Assembly (NCBI RefSeq): GCF_013031245.1
Contig: NZ_WPZL01000003.1
Span: forward strand, 293,681 to 357,680
Length of the DNA stretch: 64,000 nt
Origin: Ruegeria lacuscaerulensis
GTDB lineage: Bacteria > Pseudomonadota > Alphaproteobacteria > Rhodobacterales > Rhodobacteraceae
Direction: 5' to 3'
Below are positions 50,040 to 64,000 of this stretch, piece by piece. Under the pieces are notes generated by a model, which made no database searches, was not told the origin of the DNA, and saw nothing but the letters and a program-made list of their open reading frames with translations. The translations under genes and the position numbers were made by a program. Each line of letters begins with the position of its first letter. Position 1 is the first letter of the stretch.

Positions 50040-50162
50040 ATGGCGCGCCTCGAAGGAGAAAGTTCGAACACTCTTTTCGAGACGCTTGAGGAATGGGAAC
50101 GGCATCTCACGCAACTAGACCTTGATGGTCGGAGGTGCGTCGATGAAGTATCCAGACAATGA
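50040..50162 (+). CDS. Possible 40-residue small protein overlapping mobC start
   Basis: ATG 50040 to TGA 50160. The product is acidic and helical (SSNTLFETLEEWERHL, then QLDLDGRRCVDEV), looks protein-like, and ends 20 bases inside mobC in another frame, which would couple the two. CAGGA precedes it closely. No family known. Confidence 0.35.
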   Translation: MARLEGESSNTLFETLEEWERHLTQLDLDGRRCVDEVSRQ

Positions 50163-50601
50163 AATCAAAAACTTAAATAACCCTGAGCCCAAAAAGGAGC
50201 GTGAACCGACCTTTCCGGTGCCGTTTTCGCTGCGGCTAAGCTTTGAGGAGCGTGCGCAGCTAGAAAACGAGGCGGCTGGGATTCCGGTCGGTGCGTATAT
50301 CAGGCAAAGACTGTTCCGCGACAAGGAGACCCCGCGCAAGAGGCGCGGCAAGTCTCCGGTGAAGGATCATGTCGCGCTTGGCCGTGTGCTTGGGGCGCTC
50401 GGCCAGTCGCGGATTTCCAATAATCTAAACCAGCTTGCCAAGGCCGTGAATACCGGCTCGCTACCCGTCACGCAGGAAACCGAGGACGCGATCAAGCAGG
50501 CTTGCGATGATGTCAAAGCCATGCGGCAAGACTTGCTGCTGGCGCTTGGTGTCTGCAATTCGGGTTCAGGTTCGAAAACTGGACCGAGCCTGACACCATG
50601 A
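50143..50601 (+). CDS. mobC: MobC-type relaxosome protein
   Basis: 152 residues from ATG 50143 (GGAGG upstream). A ribbon-helix-helix-like start (PFSLRLSFEERAQLENEA) and the MobC signature GQSRISNNLNQLAKAVNTG are present. MobC helps the relaxase open DNA at oriT. It overlaps the relaxase gene by four bases. Confidence 0.88.
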   Translation: MKYPDNEIKNLNNPEPKKEREPTFPVPFSLRLSFEERAQLENEAAGIPVGAYIRQRLFRDKETPRKRRGKSPVKDHVALGRVLGALGQSRISNNLNQLAKAVNTGSLPVTQETEDAIKQACDDVKAMRQDLLLALGVCNSGSGSKTGPSLTP

Positions 50602-51884
50602 TCCTGCAAGCCAAGGAACGCGGTGATGGTCCGCAGCTCGCCAGATACCTTCTCGCCATGCGGGACAATGATCATGTCGAGTTGCATGAAGTGCGCGGTT
50701 TTATCGGCGATGATCTTCTGGATGCATTTCATGAGACGGATGCGATTGCCAAAGGGACGCGGTGCGAGAACTATCTGTTTTCGATGAGCCTGAACCCGCC
50801 GCAAGGCGAACAGGTATCGACGGAATCCTTTGAAAATGCAGCGAATGAGATCGAGCAAAAGCTGGGACTCGAGGGTCAGCCCCGCGCGATTGTCTTTCAT
50901 GAAAAAGACGGGCGGAGGCATGCTCATTGTGTTTGGTCGCGCATTGATGCTGAGTCGATGACCGCAATCAACCTGCCGTTCTATAAGCGCAAGCTCATCG
51001 AGCAATCACGGAAGCTGTTTCTTGAGCATGGCTGGGACATGCCGGAAGGCTTTCAGCACTGGACGCTGCGTGATCCTCTGAACTTCAACCGCGCTGAATG
51101 GCAACAAGCCAAGCGCGTCAAGCTTGATCCGCGCGAGCTCAAGGCGCTGTTCAGAAATTGCTGGGAGTCAACCGATTCAAAATCTGCGCTGCAAAACGCC
51201 TTGCAGGAACGCGGCTTCTGGCTGGCTCAAGGTGATCGGAAGGCTTTTGTCGCCATCGACTACCGTGGAGAAATCTATTCGCTCTCCAAATGGTCTAGTG
51301 TCCGCGTCAAGGATGTGAAGGCACGCCTTGGCGATCCGAAAGACTTGCCGTCTGTCGAACAGATCAAAACCCGTATCGGCGAGCGTATGACGGGGGCGCT
51401 ATCGCGCTTTGTCAAAGACATGGAAGCGGATGCGCGGCGACGCTCGGCAAGCCTTGAGTTCAGGCGAAGCGAAATGGCTGGTCGGCATCGCGAAGAGCGA
51501 AAGGCGCTCAAGGCCGCGCTGGAAAAGCGCTGGATTGCAGAAACCAAGGCCCGCGCTGCCCGCTTGCCGCGCGGCATGAAAGGCATCTGGCACAGGATCA
51601 CGGGGCGTTATTCCGAGATCAAGCGGCGGAACGAGCGCGAATCCTGGGACGCCCATCGGCGCGATCAGGCAGAAACCGACCGCTTGATCCTGCGGCAGCT
51701 TGAGGACCGGCGTGTGCTGCAAATCGAGATCAGGGAACACCGCAAGCAGGAGCAAGAAGAACTACTGGACCTGCGGGCCGATATCGCGCGTTACCAAGAC
51801 CTCAGTGAGGAGCGCGAGGCCGAACCATCGCGAGACAAAGACAGAGGGCGCAAACGAAACCGTCCGCACCGCCCAAGACGATAG
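50598..51884 (+). CDS. Relaxase/mobilisation nuclease (MOBP-like)
   Basis: 428 residues. The N-terminus GDGPQLARYLLAMRD places a tyrosine (Y17) where MOBP relaxases carry their nucleophile; the metal-binding motif is HEKDGRRHAHCVWSRID (about residues 99-115). The C-terminal half is long, charged and helical. It likely nicks the element's oriT. No type IV secretion genes are visible, so the element would be mobilised by a helper. Confidence 0.87.
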   Translation: MILQAKERGDGPQLARYLLAMRDNDHVELHEVRGFIGDDLLDAFHETDAIAKGTRCENYLFSMSLNPPQGEQVSTESFENAANEIEQKLGLEGQPRAIVFHEKDGRRHAHCVWSRIDAESMTAINLPFYKRKLIEQSRKLFLEHGWDMPEGFQHWTLRDPLNFNRAEWQQAKRVKLDPRELKALFRNCWESTDSKSALQNALQERGFWLAQGDRKAFVAIDYRGEIYSLSKWSSVRVKDVKARLGDPKDLPSVEQIKTRIGERMTGALSRFVKDMEADARRRSASLEFRRSEMAGRHREERKALKAALEKRWIAETKARAARLPRGMKGIWHRITGRYSEIKRRNERESWDAHRRDQAETDRLILRQLEDRRVLQIEIREHRKQEQEELLDLRADIARYQDLSEEREAEPSRDKDRGRKRNRPHRPRR

Positions 51885-53087: not shown

Positions 53088-54005
53088 TTATCCCTCGCGG
53101 CCAAGCGATTGCTCAAGTAATGCAACCAGCTCAGCGCGGCGTTCCGGCGGCAGGGAGTCGAGATTTCGTTGCCGCCATTTGACGGCGGGTAATTCGCTGG
53201 CATGCGGGGTTCTGATCAATGACCAATCCGGCTCTCCGTGCTCAAAACGGATCAGAAATTTCCGATGTTTGTCTGGCATGTTGCCGATCAGATCAGCGAT
53301 CAAGTTTTGCTGCGTCTGAATGAGGTCTTCGATGCCAACGGCGGTTTCTGTCATGCCGTCGAAACCGTCCCTGAATTCATCGGCAAGGTCTTTGACGCGG
53401 CCAGACAGCACCTCTCCCATTGGGCGGTTGTGGCTGAGAAGATAAACAAGGAAAGCTTCGCGCAGCGCGTCGGTCAGCCCCTCATTGGAAAACAGATCGC
53501 GAACGTCGAACAAGTCTCGCGGATGCTGGCGGTCTAGGGCGGCGACGAGCTTGCCCGCATAGAGGTCTTCGAAGGACACAACGGCGATTTCCGCATACCC
53601 GAAAGCGTCTTCGACGGCCTCGGTCACGGGTTGGACGCTTGGTTCTTTGACAACACCGCGTAGCACGGGTGAGACTTCAATCTTGACCTGCGTGCGTTCC
53701 GCCGAAACCACCAAACGCAAAACAGTGCCTTCGCTGACGCTCTGTGTTGTTCGCGATCCTGGGATTTCAGCGAGTATGGTGGCCTCGATCCATTTCATTG
53801 CCGCGTCAATTCCGGCAAGCGCTTCCGGTCTTGCGTGCATTGGCAGATACATCAGGTCGATATCCACGGAGAGGCGCGGCAGATTGCGAACAAACAGGTT
53901 GATTGCCGTGCCGCCTTTGAGCGCAAAACAATCTTCGCGCGCCGCAATCGGCAGAAGGCGCATCAGCAAGCGGACTTGATGTTCGTAGTGTTCACGAAAG
54001 GCCAT
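53088..54005 (-). CDS. abiEii: AbiEii-type nucleotidyltransferase toxin
   Basis: 305 residues. The nucleotidyltransferase core has FALKGGTAINLFVRNLPRLS and the metal-binding VDIDLMY, with VSFEDLYAGKLVAALDRQHP and RDLFDVRDL further on, all features of AbiEii/MenT toxins (type IV toxin-antitoxin). It follows the antitoxin with a 14-base overlap. AbiE systems block phage by abortive infection and stabilise mobile elements. Confidence 0.92.
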   Translation of the reverse strand: MAFREHYEHQVRLLMRLLPIAAREDCFALKGGTAINLFVRNLPRLSVDIDLMYLPMHARPEALAGIDAAMKWIEATILAEIPGSRTTQSVSEGTVLRLVVSAERTQVKIEVSPVLRGVVKEPSVQPVTEAVEDAFGYAEIAVVSFEDLYAGKLVAALDRQHPRDLFDVRDLFSNEGLTDALREAFLVYLLSHNRPMGEVLSGRVKDLADEFRDGFDGMTETAVGIEDLIQTQQNLIADLIGNMPDKHRKFLIRFEHGEPDWSLIRTPHASELPAVKWRQRNLDSLPPERRAELVALLEQSLGREG

Positions 54006-54843
54006 CGAGGTCCTCCGGAACGGTGATCAGATAGGCTGGATCAAGTCGCCCGCCTTTCACGAGCATCCGCTTGCCCTTGCCAAGATCAACGGCGTCTTTG
54101 TCGAGCCGCTTTAGCCACGCATGGTCGTGACGGTCGGCAAAGTAGAAGAAAAGGCGCTTGACCTTGATGCTGGCGCAGTCGGTCAGAAGTTTTTGCAAGC
54201 GGCGCGGGCTAAAGTTTGCGGCCCCCTGCATGAACATATCGGCCTGATGAAAACTCTCGTTGCTTGGCAACTCGTCCAGCATTTCCAGATAGGCTCGCTC
54301 TGGTCTCGATAGGGTCAGCGGCCAGTCCCATTGTCCCCATGCCAATGTACCCAAGCTTCCGCCCTGAAAACGTTCAAGATCACGCCCCGTTCCTTTGGAG
54401 ATATCCCACGCGAGGTTTCCCAGCCCGAGGGTGATCGGTTGGTTTCGAAACAGGGTTTCGCTGTTGTGATAGACGAAGCGTTGCGGAAGGCTCAGCTTGT
54501 TGAGCCAGCTTGGCGGCTTGTCAGGGCCGTATAGATGGGTCGTTTTGGTTTCATGCACGAGGTAGTGGGCGAAGCCTTGAAGCTCTAACGCTGTTCGGCC
54601 TCCAACTACGAGTGGCACTGCGAGCAGAGTTTGGAGTGATATCACGACCTGCTGCCAACTGAGCGAGCCGCGTGGACGACGGTAAACACCGCGTGCGGCC
54701 TGCTCCAACCATCCGTTTTTGACGTAGTATGAACGTAGATTGCTGGCGATATTGCGCTTCTCAAGCCATGCAGCATCGACCACCAACCCTTCGGGCAGGT
54801 CTTTCTCCAATCGGTTTAGGTGTGACGATCTTTGCTCACTCAT
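53992..54843 (-). CDS. abiEi: AbiEi-type antitoxin
   Basis: 283 residues. An N-terminal winged helix (SNLRSYYVKNGWLEQAARGV, then YRRPRG) binds DNA; the C-terminal part carries LLAVPLVVGGRTALELQG and NFSPRRLQKLLTDCASIKVK, typical of AbiEi. It represses its own promoter and neutralises AbiEii. The -10 element ends seven bases before ATG 54843, so the transcript may be leaderless. Confidence 0.9.
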   Translation of the reverse strand: MSEQRSSHLNRLEKDLPEGLVVDAAWLEKRNIASNLRSYYVKNGWLEQAARGVYRRPRGSLSWQQVVISLQTLLAVPLVVGGRTALELQGFAHYLVHETKTTHLYGPDKPPSWLNKLSLPQRFVYHNSETLFRNQPITLGLGNLAWDISKGTGRDLERFQGGSLGTLAWGQWDWPLTLSRPERAYLEMLDELPSNESFHQADMFMQGAANFSPRRLQKLLTDCASIKVKRLFFYFADRHDHAWLKRLDKDAVDLGKGKRMLVKGGRLDPAYLITVPEDLDGLS

Positions 54844-55312: not shown

Positions 55313-56218
55313 TTACGCGGCGACTCCTTCCTGCTGCTCGGTTTCTTGCTCTTGGAAGCTGTGTAGGTAATCCGCTGCCTGCTGTGCGTGCGCTGCCGCG
55401 CTAAAGATTGCCCGCTTGTCATTCTTCAAGACTTTCAGCCAGCTCTGGATATACGCCGCGTGATCTGTTCCGGCTTCGGGCGTCAGGGACAGATCGGCAC
55501 AAAGGAAAGCTGCGCCAAGCTCGGCAACAAGTTCTTCTCTTGCATAACCTTCATCACCCCATTTTTTGCGTCCGAAGTCGCGATCAAGGCGGCTCTTGTG
55601 CTTTGTCCAGTGGGTCAATTCATGGGCAAGGGTCGCGTAGTAGCTTTCAGGGCTGCGGAAGCTCTCGAAATAAGGCATTTGCACATGATCTGTGCCGCCG
55701 CTGTAATGGGCAGAATTCCCGCCATGGCGAATATCTGCGCCTGTGGCTGCAAAGAAGGTTTCGGCGTGTTCGATCCGCTCGGCAGGATCAATCACGGGTT
55801 CTGGCTTGGCATAGAAATGCTCTGGCAGTCCTTCGATCTGCTCCACGTTGAACACGCTATAGCCTTTCATGAACGGGATTTTCCGTTCTTCTTCGCTGCC
55901 GTCGTCCTGTTCTTCTGTCTTGGTGATGGTGTTGGCATAAACGACCAGATTGCCGCGTTCGCCCTTGCGCACATGCGCCCCGAATTCCTTGGCTTGGCGG
56001 TAGGTCATCCAGAATGGGGAGAGATAGCCGCCTTCCATCGCCGCACCCCAGAGCATCAACACGTTGATGCCGTTATAGGGCATGCCGTTGTGACGGAGCG
56101 GCTTGATAATCCGCCCTTCCATGTTTCCGGCTGACCACGGCTTGAGCCATGTCAGTTCGCCTTGCTCAAGATCGGCAATGATCTTGTCTGTCACTTTTTG
56201 ATAAATGTCTTGTTTCAT
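55313..56218 (-). CDS. ArdC-like antirestriction protein (ssDNA-binding plus zincin)
   Basis: 301 residues from ATG 56218, preceded by GAGGAGGAAAAGACC. The N-terminal domain (ELTWLKPWSAG, YNGINVLMLW, FGAHVRKGERG) is the ArdC ssDNA-binding domain. The C-terminal metallopeptidase has YYATLAHELTHWTKHKSRLD with HELTH, and EELVAELGAAFLC. Such proteins protect incoming DNA from restriction during transfer. Confidence 0.9.
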   Translation of the reverse strand: MKQDIYQKVTDKIIADLEQGELTWLKPWSAGNMEGRIIKPLRHNGMPYNGINVLMLWGAAMEGGYLSPFWMTYRQAKEFGAHVRKGERGNLVVYANTITKTEEQDDGSEEERKIPFMKGYSVFNVEQIEGLPEHFYAKPEPVIDPAERIEHAETFFAATGADIRHGGNSAHYSGGTDHVQMPYFESFRSPESYYATLAHELTHWTKHKSRLDRDFGRKKWGDEGYAREELVAELGAAFLCADLSLTPEAGTDHAAYIQSWLKVLKNDKRAIFSAAAHAQQAADYLHSFQEQETEQQEGVAA

Positions 56219-56557
56219 TGGTCTTTTCCTCCTCTTTAAAAGCCGGTTGCGCATGCAACCGGACTAGGCCCGCGCCAATGAGCGGGGGGAGACCGTCAGG
56301 ACCGCAGACAGCGGAGGGGGATCACCCGCCCTGCACAAACGCAGAGCGGAAGGACGGGGATACCGCTGGCTGCGCCCGCAACCAATGTGAAGGGCTTGGT
56401 CTTGACGGAGGACGGGGTCGCAGACCCCAACAAAAGAAAGAACGTCAGCCCGTCAGGGCTGGCAATAAACGCGCAAGGGATGGACGCCGCTTGGCCGAGA
56501 CCGCCAAAGGCGGGCTCGGTTCACGACAGCCCGCCCCGCAGGGGTGCGCCGAGAAAC
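56219..56557. other. GC-rich structured noncoding region
   Basis: 339 bases without a convincing gene. Hairpins: CCGGTTGC-GCAT-GCAACCGG (about 56,241-56,260), GGGGTC-GCA-GACCCC (about 56,414-56,428), CAGCCC-GTCA-GGGCTG (about 56,447-56,462), and CCGCC-AAA-GGCGG (about 56,502-56,514). It lies between the ArdC leader side and the 3' end of the defence operon. Candidate noncoding RNA, replication or recombination site. Confidence 0.45.
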
Positions 56558-57415
56558 CTACCACAGGGCAATATCTGTGGAGTCCGGCTCAGAATCCGGC
56601 AGCAATACCTGAACAGGCATGGTCATGGGAGTATCAAGACCAATTACAAGGGCTTCTCCCTGTCCGAGTATTGGAAGGAAAGCTGCCGCTGAAGCATCGA
56701 GGCTACCGCAAGCTCGCTCTACGATCTGACGATCTTTCTCGTTTATCAGACGATGCACGATGAACATCCCCATCTGGCTTAAAACGTCCTCGGGGATGTC
56801 GCGAGGGCGCTGCGTCGATAGCACAGTCAGCAGACCATACTTCCGGCCTTCTTTGGCGATCAGGCCGAACGACTCCAGCCGAAATCGGTTATAGTCGTCG
56901 CCAACTGACTTGTTAAGAAACTGATGCGCTTCATCGAGCACGGTCAACACTGGCTGCGCTCGAAATGCGCCAGAGCGCGCTTTGGTCAGCAAATAGCGCC
57001 CGAAGCCGTTAGCCACCAGTTCGCGTGTATTGTGCTCAAAGGGTAGGTCTTCCATCGAAATTCGCAAGATGCTTTGATCTTCATTGGCGAGGAACTCGTC
57101 AAGCACTGCCGTAAGATCGTGTGCTCCAGCAGGCGCGAAAATACATGCCATCTCTCGCGAGGCAATTTGAACAGCGATACGACTGACGAGTGTTGTACAA
57201 TACCCCCGACTGTTCTGGTCGTAACCTCCCCAGCTATTGGCATTGCCACCGTGAGCGGTCGGCCAGACACATTCTTCATAAATTTGATCAGGTAGCTTTG
57301 TGATATCGTAGATAGCGCCAGGCTCCCGTATGCCCGCAGCGTGTTGAGCGAGCGCGGCGTTGAACGCGGCCTTCGCAGCGTTTGCCTTTAGTAGAAGTCC
57401 ATTGTTGTTTGCCAA
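56558..57415 (-). pseudogene. HerA ATPase, C-terminal half after an in-frame stop
   Basis: Same frame as the upstream half, separated by TAG (57,424-57,422) and two codons. A TTG at 57415 could start it but lacks a clear ribosome site. It holds Walker B LTVLDEAHQFL (about residues 157-167 of this half), LLTVLSTQRPRDIPEDVL and the late catalytic region GMFIVHRLINEKDRQIV of the HerA/FtsK group. Without the Walker A half it cannot be an ATPase. Confidence 0.82.
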
Positions 57416-57421
57416 TGCGGG

Positions 57422-58246
57422 CTACAACGCGAGAAGCTTCAAGCTAATCAGAGCTTCGCGAAGTTTCGGTGACTGTGATCCTCCGCTCGGTTGAAACATT
57501 GCGAAGAGATCACTTTCCGACAAATGGCGGTAAGGGAAAGAGACAAACTCTCGTTGATCATCGGCATCCACAGGTTCACCACCCAAGTAAACATGTCGCA
57601 CGCGCTCATTGAGCGTGTGAAATTCTCCGCTTGGATCGAACAGAATTGCTTTGCCGTGGTTACGCGCGACTTCTCCAAGCATGCGGGCAACGGTCCAACT
57701 CTTCCCACCGCCTGTTGTACCAAGCACAGCACAATGGCGTCCAAAAAGTGCGGACGGTGCGAAAGTGACGTGCGTGGTGGGTGATGAAGGCACATGCGCA
57801 AGGTCAACATGCCGATCCTGATCGCCGCGGCGATCTTCGATCGCATGCTTTACTAGGTCTGGATGTGCCGCGTAGGCGTACTGCCCGATACGCGGATGCT
57901 CGGGAACACCACGGACGGTCTCGCCGGAGGCCAATTCGATCGAGAGCAAAAGCTGCACGATACCGACGGGATTTACGGGCGTCTTCGCGTTTTCTCGTGA
58001 TGGCTCAACGGTCAGTCTCTCTCCCTCGGGCAGGCGTACCTGAGTTAAGCGGCCCAAGACCGCATGTGTCTCGCCTTCAATTAGAACGAACTCTCCAACT
58101 TCGCCCCTTCCGATACGATGCCCAGAATAGCTGGATGATGCGGCGGCATAACCATGAGGCAAATTTAAACGCACAGACGCGGGCTCGATTTGCGTGACGG
58201 ACCCCAAGTATCGCTTTGTCTCGAATGGCGCAGTCGGAAGTGACAT
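57422..58246 (-). pseudogene. HerA ATPase, N-terminal half ending at an in-frame stop
   Basis: About 274 residues from ATG 58246 (GTG 58252 overlaps the SIR2 stop and is an alternative). The N-terminal HAS-barrel (SVRLNLPHGYAAASSSYSGH) is followed by Walker A in CAVLGTTGGGKSWTVARML. It ends ...SLKLLAL at TAG. The joined protein would be ~560 residues, normal for HerA. A single C-to-T change of CAG (Gln) or similar would explain the stop. Confidence 0.82.
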
Positions 58247-58248
58247 GA

Positions 58249-59454
58249 TCACCCCCCTCGAACGGCGCGGACCCGTTCGACGTGACGCTCCAAGTCTGTC
58301 ATTGCCGTCAGATCGGGAACAATGGGTACAATGTCTTCAAAGGTTGCGCCAATCATAGACAGGCGAGCATCGCCCTGATTGATCAGTTCCGAAATCTTGG
58401 ATAGATGTCCGTTCGCCCCTGAGTGTTCCTGCACATTTGGCGAAACTACAACAACCTTCAATGCCAGATTGGTCTCGATTGCGGCAAGGATGGGCTCAGC
58501 GATGTGATTGTCATTGAAACCAAATCCAACGACAAGCAGCCCCGTGTCGCGTTTCCGAATTGCAGACTGGAAGGACGAAATCATTTCTAGATAGGGTTGC
58601 GCGAAAGCTAGCTCATATTTGGTGTTTCGCGGGTAAATAAGGAGTGGCCTGTCTGCGCTTGGAACCCTATTAATTTTGCTGGCATCTTCATCGAACTCCC
58701 AATCTATTGAGCCGTGGATCTTGTATAATTGGAATAGATTTTCGATGTAGTCTGGCGCATCCGACTCGCTACCGCGACGGACGATATCATAAGAAAAGTG
58801 CATCGGATCAAATGTCGACGGCTGCGAGAGCGTAAATCCGTCCATTACAACGAAGCCAGCACGCTGCCCCGCATGCTCGAAACACCGATCATAATTGGTG
58901 GTGAAGAGCCTAAGTCGTTCGCGCCTTACAGAACGTCGAGCGAGCCGTCGAAGGAATGACTCATGCAAGGGCAACTGCTCATTGGAGTCAAGAAAATCAA
59001 CTTTTCCCCTAATAATCCGCTCCGCATCCGCTATGAAGCGACTAATTTTCTCTTGCTCTTCGCCAGCTTCGAAAGATTCTGCGATCTTAGCTCTAGAAAG
59101 TAGTTCTTCGATGTCAGTGTTGCCTTCGGGGTGGCGAGCTATCTGAAGAACTTCATTCCATGTGGGATACCCCTCTCGTGCCTCCGCATAGGCTTGCTGT
59201 ACGGCTTGCCAAAGTACCCCCATCGTTGGCGCTTTCACGTTGCCGCCGTCATCCTTTACGCAAAGTGACGTACCTAGACCCGTGAGGACGATCAAATTCT
59301 TCGAGCGAACGATGTCCGAAAGGACTCTATCGATCTCCTGACGTGCGGGATCAGGCCGATCTCGGCCATCGGCTGCCTCACCTTCAAACTCTTCGGCAGG
59401 CTCAGCTTCCTCTTCTAGCCATTCCTGGTTCGTCATGTAAGTCTTGATTCTCAT
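58249..59454 (-). CDS. SIR2-domain protein of a SIR2-HerA defence module
   Basis: 401 residues. The NAD pocket has LTGLGTSL (58-65), LFTTNYD (183-189) and KIHGSIDW with H247, plus LLVVGFGFNDNHI (306-318). The N-terminal ~35 residues are strongly acidic. SIR2 effectors paired with HerA degrade NAD to stop phage. It overlaps the nuclease gene upstream by four bases and the HerA start downstream by four (GTGA). Confidence 0.88.
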   Translation of the reverse strand: MRIKTYMTNQEWLEEEAEPAEEFEGEAADGRDRPDPARQEIDRVLSDIVRSKNLIVLTGLGTSLCVKDDGGNVKAPTMGVLWQAVQQAYAEAREGYPTWNEVLQIARHPEGNTDIEELLSRAKIAESFEAGEEQEKISRFIADAERIIRGKVDFLDSNEQLPLHESFLRRLARRSVRRERLRLFTTNYDRCFEHAGQRAGFVVMDGFTLSQPSTFDPMHFSYDIVRRGSESDAPDYIENLFQLYKIHGSIDWEFDEDASKINRVPSADRPLLIYPRNTKYELAFAQPYLEMISSFQSAIRKRDTGLLVVGFGFNDNHIAEPILAAIETNLALKVVVVSPNVQEHSGANGHLSKISELINQGDARLSMIGATFEDIVPIVPDLTAMTDLERHVERVRAVRGG

Positions 59455-60644
59455 CGGGCTTTCCTCTCCACAAGGCGGGCCTCGTGAGTTTCGTAAGTAT
59501 AATTCTTGATTGTTCCGTCCTTGATTTTCTCGACTGCTTCATCGATGGCATAGAGAGGCACTAAAAACCATTCTCTTGGGACCACTGGTCGCCCGAACCG
59601 ATCCATGATCTCGATTTCTAGTCGGGCTGGCGCGAATATGCGATGGATGAGGTTTTCAAGCTTGGTGCGGTTGATATTGTAAAGCTCGTAGGTCGCTACG
59701 ACTTCAACATCCGCCATAAGAAACGTCGATTGCAGCCTAGCTCCTGCAATCCGTTTCTCTACGCTCATGTTTGTGACGCCGATCTTGTGCACAAGATCGC
59801 GGTTTTCGGCGACAAGTGGGTGATCAGACTTGCTGCGCAATACATAGATCGTGCCGCTGGCCTCGTCGCCGTCGATCGTGTGATCAGAGAAGAGCGGACC
59901 AGCAGTCGGATCGGTGATGCGTCTTCCTGCTTCGTCCTTGTTCAGCGCGCGCTGAAGGGAGCGCATGAGCATGTTGCTCTCCGTTCCGTTGTCGAAGATC
60001 ACGCGGAGCCTGGCGTCTGTTCGGCCTTGATCGGTCAACGTCATTTCGCCCATCTCTGCGACGTACGCCTTCTGGCCGCCGACAATGAAAAAACGGCCTT
60101 TCTCGATTTCGGCTTTCATCTCGAAGGGGCGCGTCTCGCGAAGGCCTGAGGTGAGTTCCTTCTGAACTTGTTCGAAGAGCGGTTTGAAGGTCTCGAAATC
60201 TTCGCACTTTTCGCGTCCGGCGACTTCTTCCGCAGCCTTCTTCTCGGCGCTGGATCGGACGTGCTTCAGCACGGTCAGGGGTGACGCTTCAGCCTCAATG
60301 CCCAGCTCGGCGAGCAACGCGTCGTCGTCAAGCTCTTCCTCGTTGACCGGAACAGGCTGTGCTCCACGCAAAAGCCCCTGATGATCCAGAGGCTCGACCA
60401 GTTCCATGCAATCTTGCTGCTCGCGGATGCGATCTAGGCGCACGGCGTAGAGCCGCTCAAAAATATCGCGGTCCTCGCCATGTTGCGGCGATCGGCCATG
60501 CTCTTCCACGAAACGCTGGATTTCTTCGAAGCCTGCGATGATCCGTTCCTCTCGTGGGGTACGGGCTGCGGTCTTCTTTTCTTCGACCTCGACACCCAGC
60601 TCGGCGAGAAGGGCATCATCTTCTTCGGTGAACTGCTTAGCCAT
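59451..60644 (-). CDS. GIY-YIG-type nuclease (T5orf172-like) protein
   Basis: 397 residues. The C-terminal domain has GTIYVLRS (264-271, GIY position), DLVHKIGVTN (283-292, YIG position), Arg298, Glu330 and His334 in LENLIHRIF, and PREWF (356-360): the T5orf172/GIY-YIG layout. The N-terminal 150 residues are acidic and carry a repeated DDALLAELG motif. The start overlaps the helicase stop by eight bases. Confidence 0.82.
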   Translation of the reverse strand: MAKQFTEEDDALLAELGVEVEEKKTAARTPREERIIAGFEEIQRFVEEHGRSPQHGEDRDIFERLYAVRLDRIREQQDCMELVEPLDHQGLLRGAQPVPVNEEELDDDALLAELGIEAEASPLTVLKHVRSSAEKKAAEEVAGREKCEDFETFKPLFEQVQKELTSGLRETRPFEMKAEIEKGRFFIVGGQKAYVAEMGEMTLTDQGRTDARLRVIFDNGTESNMLMRSLQRALNKDEAGRRITDPTAGPLFSDHTIDGDEASGTIYVLRSKSDHPLVAENRDLVHKIGVTNMSVEKRIAGARLQSTFLMADVEVVATYELYNINRTKLENLIHRIFAPARLEIEIMDRFGRPVVPREWFLVPLYAIDEAVEKIKDGTIKNYTYETHEARLVERKAR

Positions 60645-62688
60645 TTGCGGCCTCCGCCTTCATGCGGGCGAGGAACGCTACACCTTCCGCCATCTTCCGT
60701 TCCCAGGCATCCGGCGACGTGATGGAGGGAAGCCTCCCGCGTTCCTGCTTGAATTTTACAGCGCGGCGGGCAAGGTCGCGGGCTTCCTCGGGTGTGAGCT
60801 GCACCTTCTTTGCCGAAATGATTGCCTGAACCTGCTTCAGGCTCTCCTCGCTCATTGTCTTCGCGAGGATAGCATAGGCTTCTGCGAATGGGTTGATCCG
60901 GTCGATCAGATCAATATCCAGCTCGCGGACATCCATCGCGAACTTGCGCACGCCGTCGATCAACGCCGTGTTGCCCTTTGCAGTGTCGTCATCGTCACTG
61001 CCTAGCGCGACCTCTTTTGCCTTCTGGGTCAAGTTCAGTGCAGCGATCGCATGCTGGCGCACGGCTTCTTGATCCTCATCGTCCAGTTCGGGATACTTGT
61101 CCTTGATGATCTTGCCCATGCGCACCTGAGTCAGTTCTTCGGGAACCAGCTCTTCATCAAAAAGGCCACGCTCGACGGCGGTTTTGTCCTGAGCAAAGGC
61201 GGCAATCACCTCGTTTAGGTCTTGCTGGCAAATGCGCTCGGCTTCCTTGCTCTTGGGTTCGGCGAGTCCCTTGATTTCGATCTGGAACTGGCCGCTTTCT
61301 TCGCTGAAGCCGACATTGCATTTCTCGGGATCGTAGCCGCCCTCGCCGTAGTCGAAACCTTCCTGCGGCCCGCTGGCTTGAGCTTTCGGCGTGAAGTTGA
61401 AACGTGGGGCGAGGACCGGTTCCATGAGCAAACTCGCAGCGATCGCCTTGAGCGTGTCGTTGACGGCCTCAGTCACGGCCTCTTCGGACGCGTCAGGCTC
61501 GGCAATCAGATTCGTGAAGCGGGCGCGCGTCTTGCCCTCGGCATCACGTGTGGCTCGGCCAATGATCTGTACGATTTCGGTCAGGCTGGTGCGGTAGCCG
61601 ACCGTCAGCGCATGCTCACACCAAATCCAGTCGAAGCCTTCTTTCGCCATGCCGAGGGCAATGATGATGTCCACATAATCGCGATTGTTCTTCTGCGTGG
61701 GGTCTTTAAGGGCTGCCGAAACCTTTTCCCGCTTGGCATCATCATCCACGAGGTCGGCAATACGCAGCACGCGGCCTTCCGGTGTCTTCACAAGCTGGAA
61801 GCCCGTGGCAGGGTCGGTGCCTTGCCACTCGCCCAGCTCTTCGATGATGTGCTCGACTTCCCTGATCTTGTCCTTCGTGCTCTCGCGCGAATTGACCGAA
61901 GGGATGTGAATGATCGTCTTCTCGCTCGAGTCGAGCACTTTCAGGATGTCGTCGGCATAGGGTCCGGTGTAGAAGTAGTACCCGATATCAAGTGTTTTCA
62001 GATACTTATAGCCGTTGAGCTGTTCATAGTAAGTGTAGGTCACAGTCTCGAACCGCGCCTCGTCATGGGGTAGCAGCACAGGCTCGGCGTCGCCACGGAA
62101 GTATGATCCCGTCATGGCGACTACATGCACCTTGTCGCGCGCGATCAGGTCGGCGAGTTGCGCGCCTAGCTTGTTGTCGGGGTTGGCCGAGACGTGGTGA
62201 AACTCGTCCACGGCGACAAGGCAATCATCAAAGGCTTCAACGCCGAACTTTTCGACAGCGTTGCGGAAAGTTGCGTGCGGGCAGACCAAGACCTGATCGG
62301 CGCTTTTCAGAAAGGCTCCGACAGACTCCGCCTTACTCCGCTCGGAGCCTGGCGCATTGCAGAGGTTCCATTTTGGCTCGACATGCCAATCAGCCCAGAA
62401 GCCGAACTTTGCCAACGGTTCATCGGCGAAACTCGACCCGATCGACTTCTCTGGCACGGTGATGATCGCCTTGCGGACACCCTGATTGTGAAGCTTGTCC
62501 AGCGCGATGAACATCAGCGCGCGGCTCTTGCCCGAGGCAGGTGGCGATTTGATCAGAAGATATTGCTCTCCGCGCTTTTCGTAGGCACGCTCCTGCATCG
62601 GACGCATGCCAAGCTCATTCGACTTGGTAGAGCTGCCAGTCTGGGCGTACTTTACCGAAACGGAAGGGACATTTTTATCGCTGCTCAT
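60637..62688 (-). CDS. DEAD/DEAH-like superfamily 2 helicase
   Basis: 683 residues from ATG 62688, two bases after the upstream gene's stop (TGAGATG). Walker A SPPASGKSRAL (48-58), motif II VDEFHH (160-165), motif III MTGSYF, motif V GMAKEGFDW and motif VI QIIGRATRD (374-382) are seen. The C-terminal 280 residues hold a helical region without a known domain. It most resembles restriction-type translocases. Confidence 0.87.
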   Translation of the reverse strand: MSSDKNVPSVSVKYAQTGSSTKSNELGMRPMQERAYEKRGEQYLLIKSPPASGKSRALMFIALDKLHNQGVRKAIITVPEKSIGSSFADEPLAKFGFWADWHVEPKWNLCNAPGSERSKAESVGAFLKSADQVLVCPHATFRNAVEKFGVEAFDDCLVAVDEFHHVSANPDNKLGAQLADLIARDKVHVVAMTGSYFRGDAEPVLLPHDEARFETVTYTYYEQLNGYKYLKTLDIGYYFYTGPYADDILKVLDSSEKTIIHIPSVNSRESTKDKIREVEHIIEELGEWQGTDPATGFQLVKTPEGRVLRIADLVDDDAKREKVSAALKDPTQKNNRDYVDIIIALGMAKEGFDWIWCEHALTVGYRTSLTEIVQIIGRATRDAEGKTRARFTNLIAEPDASEEAVTEAVNDTLKAIAASLLMEPVLAPRFNFTPKAQASGPQEGFDYGEGGYDPEKCNVGFSEESGQFQIEIKGLAEPKSKEAERICQQDLNEVIAAFAQDKTAVERGLFDEELVPEELTQVRMGKIIKDKYPELDDEDQEAVRQHAIAALNLTQKAKEVALGSDDDDTAKGNTALIDGVRKFAMDVRELDIDLIDRINPFAEAYAILAKTMSEESLKQVQAIISAKKVQLTPEEARDLARRAVKFKQERGRLPSITSPDAWERKMAEGVAFLARMKAEAANG

Positions 62689-62689
62689 C

Positions 62690-63559
62690 TCAAATTGACT
62701 TTCTTTGGTTATATCGGCGGAGGAACAGGCGAGCAGTGACGAGCGAAATCTGTAGTCTGAAAGCCGCGTCTTCCTCCTCGGACAGTCCAGGGTGTCCCCC
62801 ATGAGGATGCATCCTGTTCATTAATCCTTGAACAAACTGCGGTTTTTGATTGTTGCTATGCCATTCGTTGTAGTCCGAGAGCAGGAACGGCGGTTGCAAG
62901 CCACCGAGAAAATCGCGCTTCGCCTTGCTGTCGTCGCTGCCTGTATATCCAAGACCTACGGCCATCTCGTTCAGATAGCTTTCGTAGAAATTTCGCAGCT
63001 CGCCATTGGCCGAAGACCATTCACCCCTTTGGAATGCGGACATTGCTTGGCTCAAGTGCCCCTTCGCCACACCGAATCCGTGCCCATCGAGTAACTGAAC
63101 AATTTCGCTCTCGGCTTCCCTAAAATTCAAACCTGAAACATCTGCGGGGAGCATTCGCGTCAACTCAAGCGCTGTCACCAAACGGTCGCCGCCAAAGAGA
63201 GACTCTCGACCGTTCGGGTCCGTAACCTGTTTCTCAACCAGCTCGAACCCGTCAAATCGAAGCCCCGCGACCAATCTCAACCATGCGCCATGTTTGCCGC
63301 GCCGAACATTCTCGTCCGCGCCCGTTGCAAGCTCGATCATCGCGCGTTCCAGCGGCTGAAGCCCGTTCAGGGTATGGACGGTTGGGTTCTCATTGATGGC
63401 TACGTGCGCCATTGCATTGACCTTTGACTGAACGGAGCCAGACCTACACCTATCTTCGACGCCCCATTGCAGCGCGAGAGAAGTGAATGCAGCCTGCGTT
63501 TTCATACCTTCGATAATCTCGGCGGCAGCGACGACGGTCATGCGGTTAAACTCGCTCAT
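62690..63559 (-). CDS. Unknown defence-operon protein with Abi_C/HEPN-like tail
   Basis: 289 residues. The region HLSQAMSAFQRGEWSSANGE then LRNFYES (168-194) and the tail RMHPHGGHPGLSEEEDAAFR (about 246-265) with a long following helix recall the Abi_C/HEPN-type helical tail found in abortive-infection proteins. It lies between a methyltransferase and a helicase with a four-base overlap on the 5' side. Function unknown; the family match is a visual guess. Confidence 0.6.
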   Translation of the reverse strand: MSEFNRMTVVAAAEIIEGMKTQAAFTSLALQWGVEDRCRSGSVQSKVNAMAHVAINENPTVHTLNGLQPLERAMIELATGADENVRRGKHGAWLRLVAGLRFDGFELVEKQVTDPNGRESLFGGDRLVTALELTRMLPADVSGLNFREAESEIVQLLDGHGFGVAKGHLSQAMSAFQRGEWSSANGELRNFYESYLNEMAVGLGYTGSDDSKAKRDFLGGLQPPFLLSDYNEWHSNNQKPQFVQGLMNRMHPHGGHPGLSEEEDAAFRLQISLVTARLFLRRYNQRKSI

Positions 63560-64000
63560 GCCGCCCCCTTCGTCTTTGTCACCTTCGTGTATAGCTCGAA
63601 GAGCTTTTCGAGGCGCTCTGTATCGTTCTTAAAACGGCGACCGATATAGATGCGTTCAAGCACCTCGTCGTTGCGATCATGCGCGGCGCGCAGATCGGCG
63701 GGCATCTTCGCGGGGTCGTAGAGATCGGCAATGGTCGTTGGGAAATGTGCCTCACGAGCTAGAAGAATATTTTGGCTACAACGCTGGAGATCGGCCATAT
63801 TTTTTTCGGTCAATTTTGGAAGAGGGAAAGAATTGTAAACAATAGTTGCGGCATAACGTACGCCATTGCCGAGACGTCCAGCAACTGTCTCCGCCCAAGC
63901 GCGATGTAGTGTGGAGACCAGCACCGCCAGCTCATGCCCGACGGGTGATCCTCCCCCTCTGAAGTGGTCCGCCGTTATGGTTAAGAAAACGGAGGAACCA
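63556..64000 (-). CDS. DNA methyltransferase (MmeI-like type IIG), C-terminal part, cut by window edge
   Basis: The frame is open from the right window edge to the stop at 63,556. The visible ~147 residues include LHRAWAETVAGRLGNGVRYA, ATIVYNSFPLPKL and TIADLYDPAKMPADLRAAHD, which match the C-terminal recognition/tail region of MmeI-type and related class I methyltransferases. The catalytic NPPY domain must lie outside. It overlaps the next gene by four bases (ATGA). Confidence 0.8.
   Translation of the reverse strand, partial: GSSVFLTITADHFRGGGSPVGHELAVLVSTLHRAWAETVAGRLGNGVRYAATIVYNSFPLPKLTEKNMADLQRCSQNILLAREAHFPTTIADLYDPAKMPADLRAAHDRNDEVLERIYIGRRFKNDTERLEKLFELYTKVTKTKGAA

What the first reader, a model, noticed from the sequence alone, without database searches (positions are those of the whole stretch)
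56558..64000. Composite six-gene defence operon: methyltransferase, unknown, helicase, GIY-YIG nuclease, SIR2, HerA
Seen: six consecutive minus-strand genes with four junctions overlapping by 4-8 bases and one gap of a single base, so they look like one translationally coupled operon. Known: SIR2-HerA pairs defend against phage by NAD depletion; methyltransferase plus helicase resembles restriction or Hma-type systems. Inference: the module may join DNA modification-based self recognition with an NAD-depleting abortive effector. The gene order with a GIY-YIG protein and a HEPN-like unknown is not one I recognise as a named system.
Basis: partly seen in the sequence, partly recalled or inferred. 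Interest (0 to 1): 0.85.

Follow-up and report, generated by a model that had tools for sequence, protein, structure and literature searches.

The report
Swappable-cassette restriction operon, broken here
A three-gene DNA-methylation operon carries different extra genes in different bacteria at one fixed spot between its methylase and its helicase, here a gene with a predicted RNA-cutting fold; it is likely a layered defence against viruses, and in this bacterium it appears broken, with a stop codon in one gene and another gene split at the ends of a repeated, probably mobile, DNA element.

Summary
The six minus-strand genes and their tight junctions are real. They are three modules, not one new system. 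(1) The core is methylase, helicase and GIY-YIG nuclease, known as DnmA-YeeB-YeeC. (2) Gene 2, with a predicted HEPN-like C-terminal fold, sits between methylase and helicase. (3) A SIR2-HerA pair follows the nuclease. The more interesting pattern is positional. Of 76 cores with a methylase end, 52 carry 0.4-7 kb of extra DNA between methylase and helicase; 0 of 80 carry any between helicase and nuclease. The inserts' co-directional ORFs fall into 19 clusters, and content changes at least 35 times on the helicase tree. Three insert families are HEPN or HEPN-like. In this genome HerA has an in-frame stop, and the methylase is split between two contigs that end in a multi-copy IS-like repeat. 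Embedding of defence genes at the matching junction of Type I systems is in print; my searches listed no report for this core. Best reading: restriction plus plug-in back-up toxins; functional coupling is inferred.

The parts
63556..63945 (-). gene 1: C-terminal part of MmeI-family DNA methylase (DnmA/YeeA-like); the rest is on contig C44, about 56-2399
   Evidence: PF20466 MmeI_TRD and PF20467 MmeI_C; PADLOC type IIG model E 3.5e-42; N-terminal part found on C44, with NPPY at residue 492
63946..64000 (.). end of a multi-copy IS-like repeat at the contig end, inside the methylase gene; CCCG duplication at 63942-63945
   Evidence: same 55 bases at 6 contig ends, and the partner end at 5 contig ends; flanks seen
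62690..63559 (-). gene 2: embedded gene, 289 aa, predicted HEPN-like C-terminal domain (about 156-289), unknown N-terminal half
60637..62688 (-). gene 3: SF2 helicase, YeeB-like (ATG at 62688; the longer ORF to 62802 is not conserved in most relatives)
   Evidence: PF00270; most relatives align from about residue 30-45 of the longer frame
59451..60644 (-). gene 4: GIY-YIG nuclease, T5orf172/MUG113 domain, YeeC-like
   Evidence: PF13455 and PF10544; IYVL at 266, KIG at 287, KRI at 297, LENLIH at 329
58249..59454 (-). gene 5: SIR2-domain predicted NADase
   Evidence: PADLOC SIR2 PDLC04075 E 1.9e-90; PF13289; TNYD at 186 and HGS at 247
56558..58252 (-). gene 6: HerA ATPase, interrupted reading frame
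   Evidence: both parts match PADLOC HerA PDLC04103, E 1.6e-76 and 5.2e-98; collinear with 8 uninterrupted homologues
57422..57424 (-). in-frame TAG stop inside HerA
   Evidence: sequence; 8 of 9 plasmid homologues have no stop, the ninth has one elsewhere

Best explanation
The locus is a DnmA-YeeB-YeeC core (MmeI-family methylase, helicase, GIY-YIG nuclease) with two add-on modules that differ between relatives, an embedded gene with a predicted HEPN-like domain and a trailing SIR2-HerA pair, and it would give layered phage defence: predicted Type I-like restriction first, and a likely suicidal RNA- or NAD-destroying back-up second. Proposed steps: the methylase marks host DNA (inferred from DnmA); the helicase moves along unmarked DNA and the GIY-YIG protein cuts it, needing the methylase for targeting (inferred); the protein made from the methylase-helicase junction is kept quiet while restriction works and attacks RNA when a phage blocks it, as PrrC does (inferred from position and fold only); SIR2-HerA empties NAD on its own trigger (inferred from Nezha). 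Shown here: module boundaries, one-junction insertion, cassette turnover, and a stop in HerA and a split methylase in this genome. The operon as found is therefore probably not fully working.
For: Core order kept in relatives and in print as dnmA-yeeB-yeeC. Insertion at methylase|helicase in 52 of 76 loci, against 0 of 80 at helicase|nuclease, Fisher p 4e-23; loci are related, so p is only descriptive. 63 co-directional insert ORFs in 19 clusters; the first starts with a 4-base overlap with the methylase stop in 38 of the 45 loci that have one. At least 35 content changes on the helicase tree. The nearest core to the window (L004, helicase 87.9% DNA identity) has a PLD-like gene in slot 1 and a short-Argonaute pair in slot 2. 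HEPN-like folds in two insert families that did not cluster together and PF05168 HEPN in a third. SIR2-HerA stands without the core in 9 of 9 loci inspected. Deleting herA cost V. cholerae Nezha its immunity (passage).
Confidence: 0.55

Rival explanations
1. Passive stacking: the methylase|helicase junction and the end of the operon are merely tolerant landing sites in a mobile defence island. Each module works alone, and nothing passes from the core to the inserts.
For: Gene 2 and SIR2-HerA both occur without the core. Slot content turns over often. Slot 2 of some loci holds complete stand-alone systems: DRT3, Gabija, Shedu, short Argonaute. TgvAB, embedded in a Type I locus, protects on its own and independently of HsdR's restriction activity (passages).
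Against: Insertion is confined to one of two equally tight junctions, and most inserts keep a start/stop overlap with the methylase. The full V. cholerae cluster protected better than tgvAB alone against several phages (passage).
Confidence: 0.33
2. One dedicated six-gene system.
For: Tight junctions in the window.
Against: 3 of 80 cores have a detectable SIR2-HerA, none of the three with gene 2's family as well; 9 of 9 inspected SIR2-HerA loci lack the core.
Confidence: 0.03
3. The core is not defence but an orphan methylase for gene regulation, and the inserts are hitch-hikers.
For: Authors of the B. subtilis studies call DnmA part of a non-functional RM remnant with effects on gene expression.
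Against: Helicase and nuclease stay beside the methylase in plasmid cores of distant bacteria. Deletions in V. crassostreae raised sensitivity to some phages, as told in PMC9973331.
Confidence: 0.06
4. Embedded genes are accessory subunits or regulators of the core (specificity, anti-antirestriction), not toxins.
For: Some inserts look like RhuM or membrane proteins; a second T5orf172-like protein sits in 3 loci.
Against: 24 of 76 cores have no insert, so the core does not need one; several inserts are nuclease- or HEPN-like.
Confidence: 0.12

Closest known systems
DnmA-YeeB-YeeC (yeeABC) cluster of Bacillus subtilis; Vibrio crassostreae homologues
   Same: methylase of MmeI family, then helicase, then T5orf172 protein, same order
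   Different: here an extra gene lies between methylase and helicase and a SIR2-HerA pair follows; the methylase is split at a repeat
Nezha / SIR2-HerA
   Same: SIR2 then HerA, 4-base overlap, catalytic-type N and H motifs in SIR2
   Different: HerA has an in-frame stop; SIR2 scores 91.8 bits against NCBIfam's cut-off of 500, so it is another branch
PrrC-EcoprrI and DarTG2- or TgvAB-in-Type I loci
   Same: a toxin or effector gene embedded in a methylation-based restriction operon; DarTG2 sits between hsdS and hsdR (passages)
   Different: core is not Type I hsdMSR; gene 2 has no ABC-ATPase part and no tested activity
Putative defence candidates found by guilt-by-embedding (Payne et al. 2024, bioRxiv; not read, known from citing passages)
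   Same: defence genes embedded inside another system; two other slot-1 inserts match PADLOC PDC-S05 and PDC-S11
   Different: gene 2 matches no PADLOC model at E 0.001

Membership tests
DnmA-YeeB-YeeC | MmeI-family methylase with an amino-methylase motif | tested here: met
   MmeI_TRD and MmeI_C in the window part; NPPY in the C44 part; NPPY/F in 65 of 67 full-length relatives
DnmA-YeeB-YeeC | no PD-ExK nuclease motif in the methylase N-terminus | tested here: inconclusive
   a loose pattern was found in 7 of 67 relatives and not checked structurally; the C44 part was not tested for it
DnmA-YeeB-YeeC | helicase then T5orf172 GIY-YIG gene directly downstream, same strand | tested here: met
DnmA-YeeB-YeeC | restriction or phage protection | not testable with these tools
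   needs experiment; B. subtilis negative, V. crassostreae positive for some phages, as told in PMC9973331
Nezha (SIR2-HerA) | SIR2 protein with catalytic N and H | tested here: met
   PADLOC PDLC04075 E 1.9e-90; TNYD 186, HGS 247
Nezha (SIR2-HerA) | intact HerA partner | tested here: not met
   in-frame TAG; a draft-assembly error is not excluded
Nezha (SIR2-HerA) | NCBIfam equivalog NF042942 score at or above its cut-off | tested here: not met
   91.8 bits against 500
HEPN superfamily (gene 2) | HEPN four-helix fold | tested here: inconclusive
HEPN superfamily (gene 2) | RX4-6H motif before the last helix | tested here: inconclusive
   R249-x6-H256 present and invariant in 46 sequences; H256 invariant but R249 lost in distant relatives
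PrrC/RloC | ABC-ATPase fused to HEPN nuclease | tested here: not met
   no ATPase domain match in gene 2, 289 aa
Hma | Hma helicase, methylase and ATPase proteins | tested here: not met
   no Hma model among the PADLOC matches shown (SIR2's table showed 25 of 26 families; of the methylase only the C-terminal part was scanned)

The most novel reading that the evidence does not exclude
The methylase-helicase junction of DnmA-YeeB-YeeC operons is a dedicated effector socket: the core senses failed or blocked restriction, and its helicase complex unleashes whichever toxin is plugged in there, so unrelated HEPN, Schlafen-like, PLD-like and RhuM cassettes are interchangeable warheads on one sensor.
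Probability: 0.22. Interest if true: 0.8.

Novelty: new variant of a known kind. Interest (0 to 1): 0.55.

Why it matters
If the core silences and releases the embedded protein, a little-studied operon family, whose helicase was found in 24 of 295 genomes of the host's family (the window's own included), becomes a general sensor with exchangeable warheads. The rule of where cassettes sit (after the marking enzyme, before the motor) would be shared with Type I restriction loci. It also gives a way to find new toxins: read what lies between methylase and helicase. Gene 2 is one such family, without a match in Pfam, NCBIfam or PADLOC.

Tried and rejected
Single six-gene system: rejected. Hma or DISARM membership: weak DrmMI/DrmD matches of the methylase part only, no Hma. 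A Pfam or PDB sequence match for gene 2: none convincing. Foldseek against PDB for gene 2: nothing at E <= 0.001, so the HEPN call rests on the second-look aligner, whose rows 9 and 17 are nucleotidyltransferase chains and row 19 a designed protein. That TT1696 and P95883_SULSO are HEPN proteins is recalled; that AbiA and LsoA carry HEPN domains is in PMC3710099 passages. The N-terminal half of gene 2 was not searched alone. The RX4-6H pattern by itself is weak: a simple search also found it in many insert proteins, and L010's PF05168 HEPN lacks it. Gene 2 in the host class: 2 of 385 genomes including its own, too few for context. SIR2 in the family: 12 of 198 genomes including its own; their short loci were not used.

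Tree count: 13 of 81 rows had no label and were left out (4 loci without a methylase end, 9 occupied loci without a named family); loci with two inserts got one label; the tree is a quick one with 21 of 78 inner branches weakly supported. Slot-1 families are named from one tested member per cluster. Seven of 52 occupied loci have no co-directional ORF by my caller, L073 of the pair L058/L073 among them. One search left out 5 loci (L008, L014, L024, L034, L060). Slot 2: 17 of 33 loci were tested with PADLOC, 6 with a full-length match; no background rate was measured. HerA: one search used 8 of the 9 plasmid homologues; the one left out, L113, was looked at and has its own in-frame stop. Five helicase-nuclease distances were an artefact of an upstream stop and were recomputed; one (L167) likewise, +28 by arithmetic.
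Full report
What is there. The window is the end of contig C30 of a 5.27 Mb draft genome. Pfam and PADLOC give: an MmeI-family methylase C-terminus; an unknown 289-aa protein with no match; an SF2 helicase; a T5orf172/MUG113 GIY-YIG protein; a SIR2 protein; and a HerA ATPase. The helicase most likely starts at the ATG at 62688, because most relatives align from about residue 30-45 of the longest frame.

Two genes look broken in this genome. HerA has an in-frame TAG at 57422-57424; both sides match the same HerA model collinearly. Of 9 plasmid homologues, 8 run through; the ninth, L113 from Phaeobacter inhibens, has its own in-frame stop at codon 201, another place, so HerA loss is not unique to this genome. 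The methylase is split: residues 1-736 of a relative match contig C44 (to about 780-800 with weaker similarity) and about 770-906 match the window end. The two contig ends carry sequences that begin alike (TGATC..CCCC), occur at 5 and 6 places in the genome, all 11 within 17 bases of a contig end, and are flanked by the same four bases CCCG. That is how a draft assembly shows a multi-copy insertion sequence inside a gene. I read the methylase as interrupted by one copy; long reads would settle it. A sequencing error in HerA cannot be excluded either.

The core is known. B. subtilis dnmA-yeeB-yeeC has the same order: methylase, helicase, T5orf172 protein (passages of PMC9973331 and PMC7261158). 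Those papers report m6A methylation by DnmA, no restriction of transformation and no protection against three phages in B. subtilis, and cite raised sensitivity to some phages on deletion in V. crassostreae. The helicase is widespread: a scan of species genomes gave at least 574 relatives, of which the best 80 were kept; 264 plasmid records match, and 24 of 295 genomes of the host's family, the own one included.

Do the six genes belong together? In the 80 loci the nuclease follows the helicase in 80, and a methylase end is found in 76. Gene 2's family is present in 10. SIR2-HerA, detectable by tblastn at 1e-5, follows in 3 (L015, L017, L020) at 24-26% SIR2 identity. More distant SIR2-HerA pairs could be missed. 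In plasmids 395 records match the SIR2. I inspected 9, mostly among the best hits: in 9 of 9 a HerA homologue follows the SIR2 (in L113 interrupted), and tblastn finds no core gene in the stretches held. Gene 2's family is in 38 plasmid records. In 7 its coordinates fall at the junction of a core found (H67-H73 against H1-H6 and H11). Ten others that I fetched, chosen among those not annotated beside a methylase, have no core gene by tblastn; annotated neighbours include AbiEii-type genes and a queC-like gene on the other strand.

The positional rule. Between methylase and helicase, 24 of 76 loci have -4 to 63 bases and 52 have 399 to 6978 bases; between helicase and nuclease all 80 have -29 to +4 (Fisher p 4e-23, descriptive because the loci are related). 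A second sample from viral contigs gave 7 of 18 occupied at the first junction, by a cruder measure and with some near-copies, and 24 of 24 between -29 and +28 at the second. Six plasmid cores inspected by annotation gave 1 of 6 occupied: a Synechococcus plasmid with toxin-antitoxin-type genes in the slot. An Acinetobacter record among the six has a small gene before a short nuclease gene, which may be a split nuclease. The 80 loci are the best-scoring ones and mostly alphaproteobacterial, so the 68% rate holds for close relatives, not for the whole family.

What fills the slot. The 63 co-directional ORFs form 19 clusters, 15 with a member of at least 130 aa. In 38 of the 45 loci with such an ORF the first one starts by a 4-base overlap with the methylase stop. 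Families, each named from one tested member: Schlafen AlbA with an HATPase domain (12 loci), gene 2's family (10), a 135-147 aa family without match (7), a 277-aa family (5), RhuM (5), PLD-like (4, weak match), a 260-264 aa family (4), T5orf172-like (3, weak match), PF05168 HEPN (2), membrane-like proteins and singles. RhuM matches PADLOC PDC-S05, and an insert of L048 matches PDC-S11. On a helicase tree of 81 rows, 68 labelled, slot content needs at least 35 changes; the least possible is 10 and the shuffled mean 41.3, with 0 of 200 shuffles as low, so content is weakly clustered but turns over often. Gene 2's family alone needs 7 changes (shuffled mean 10.3). Of 26 pairs with helicases 90% or more identical in DNA, 22 share content (21 of them inside one group of seven near relatives, in which L040 lacks a detectable gene 2) and 4 differ: L058/L073, L006/L007, L015/L022, L010/L061 (5 loci left out). 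The window's nearest core, L004 from Tranquillimonas rosea (87.9% DNA, 95% protein), carries a PLD-family gene in the slot and a short-Argonaute pair after the nuclease.

Behind the nuclease, 33 of 72 loci with enough sequence have a co-directional ORF of 100 aa or more within 100 bases. Of 17 such loci tested with PADLOC, 6 gave a full-length match to a defence model: short Argonaute pair (L004), DRT3 (L006), Gabija (L037), Shedu (L077), PDC-S06 (L041), PDC-M41B (L019) (one search used a stricter limit). I have no background rate, so this is a description, not an enrichment.

How it would work. I infer a methylation-guided restriction core whose nuclease needs the methylase. Loss of DnmA gave no growth defect in B. 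subtilis, and here a methylase apparently broken by an insertion coexists with open helicase and nuclease frames, which an independent nuclease might not allow; loss of expression through the insertion is an equally simple reason. The slot lies after the marking gene and before the motor, which is where Type I loci carry DarTG2 (between hsdS and hsdR; PMC12255303) and, by recall, PrrC. The HEPN survey of 2013 proposed that HEPN proteins linked to RM systems are second-line RNases released when restriction fails (PMC3710099 passages). The guard model for gene 2 follows from that analogy. The rival, passive stacking, stays strong: TgvAB protects alone and without HsdR's activity, although less than the full cluster against several phages (PMC11411939 passages).

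Setting. The operon is probably cargo of an integrative mobile element: MobC and relaxase genes, an ArdC anti-restriction gene and an AbiE pair lie beside it in the window, and a coupling protein and a serine recombinase lie on C44, followed by genes that look like suf genes (my reading of the translations, no family search).

Novelty. Embedding of defence genes is in print for Type I and Hma loci and beside BREX (passages). My searches for the DnmA core, or for embedding together with HEPN, MmeI or GIY-YIG terms, listed no paper on cassette exchange in this core, in a library that lacks most subscription papers and bioRxiv. I therefore rate it a new variant of a known kind.

Noticed in passing
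53088-54843, minus strand: AbiEi/AbiEii toxin-antitoxin pair with open frames next to the operon.
   Followed up: partly
55313-56254, minus strand: ArdC-type anti-restriction protein beside the restriction core.
   Followed up: partly
50122-51884, plus strand; C44:4703-9590 (L150): MobC and relaxase genes, and on the neighbouring contig a coupling protein and a serine recombinase: probably an integrative mobile element.
   Followed up: partly
63946-64000 and 10 other contig ends of G000: A multi-copy IS-like repeat breaks the assembly; its family was not determined.
   Followed up: partly
L113:9203-11035 (Phaeobacter inhibens plasmid): The HerA frame of this SIR2-HerA pair also holds an in-frame stop (codon 201), at a different place from the window's. 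Repeated decay, or something that tolerates stops in HerA.
   Followed up: partly
L016:9573-9992 and relatives (7 loci): A 135-147 aa slot-1 family with no Pfam or PADLOC match and a QLKGR stretch in the two members read, possibly nuclease-like.
   Followed up: no
L148 (Synechococcus elongatus plasmid): Slot 1 holds RelE/ParE-type toxin-antitoxin genes by annotation.
   Followed up: no
L061, L056, L074: Helicases 80-89% identical to the window's in contigs binned as Verrucomicrobia, Opitutales or Bacteroidetes; recent transfer or wrong binning.
   Followed up: no
L040 against L036: Helicases 99.6% identical in DNA, but gene 2's family is not detected in L040 while the Schlafen-type insert is kept.
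   Followed up: no
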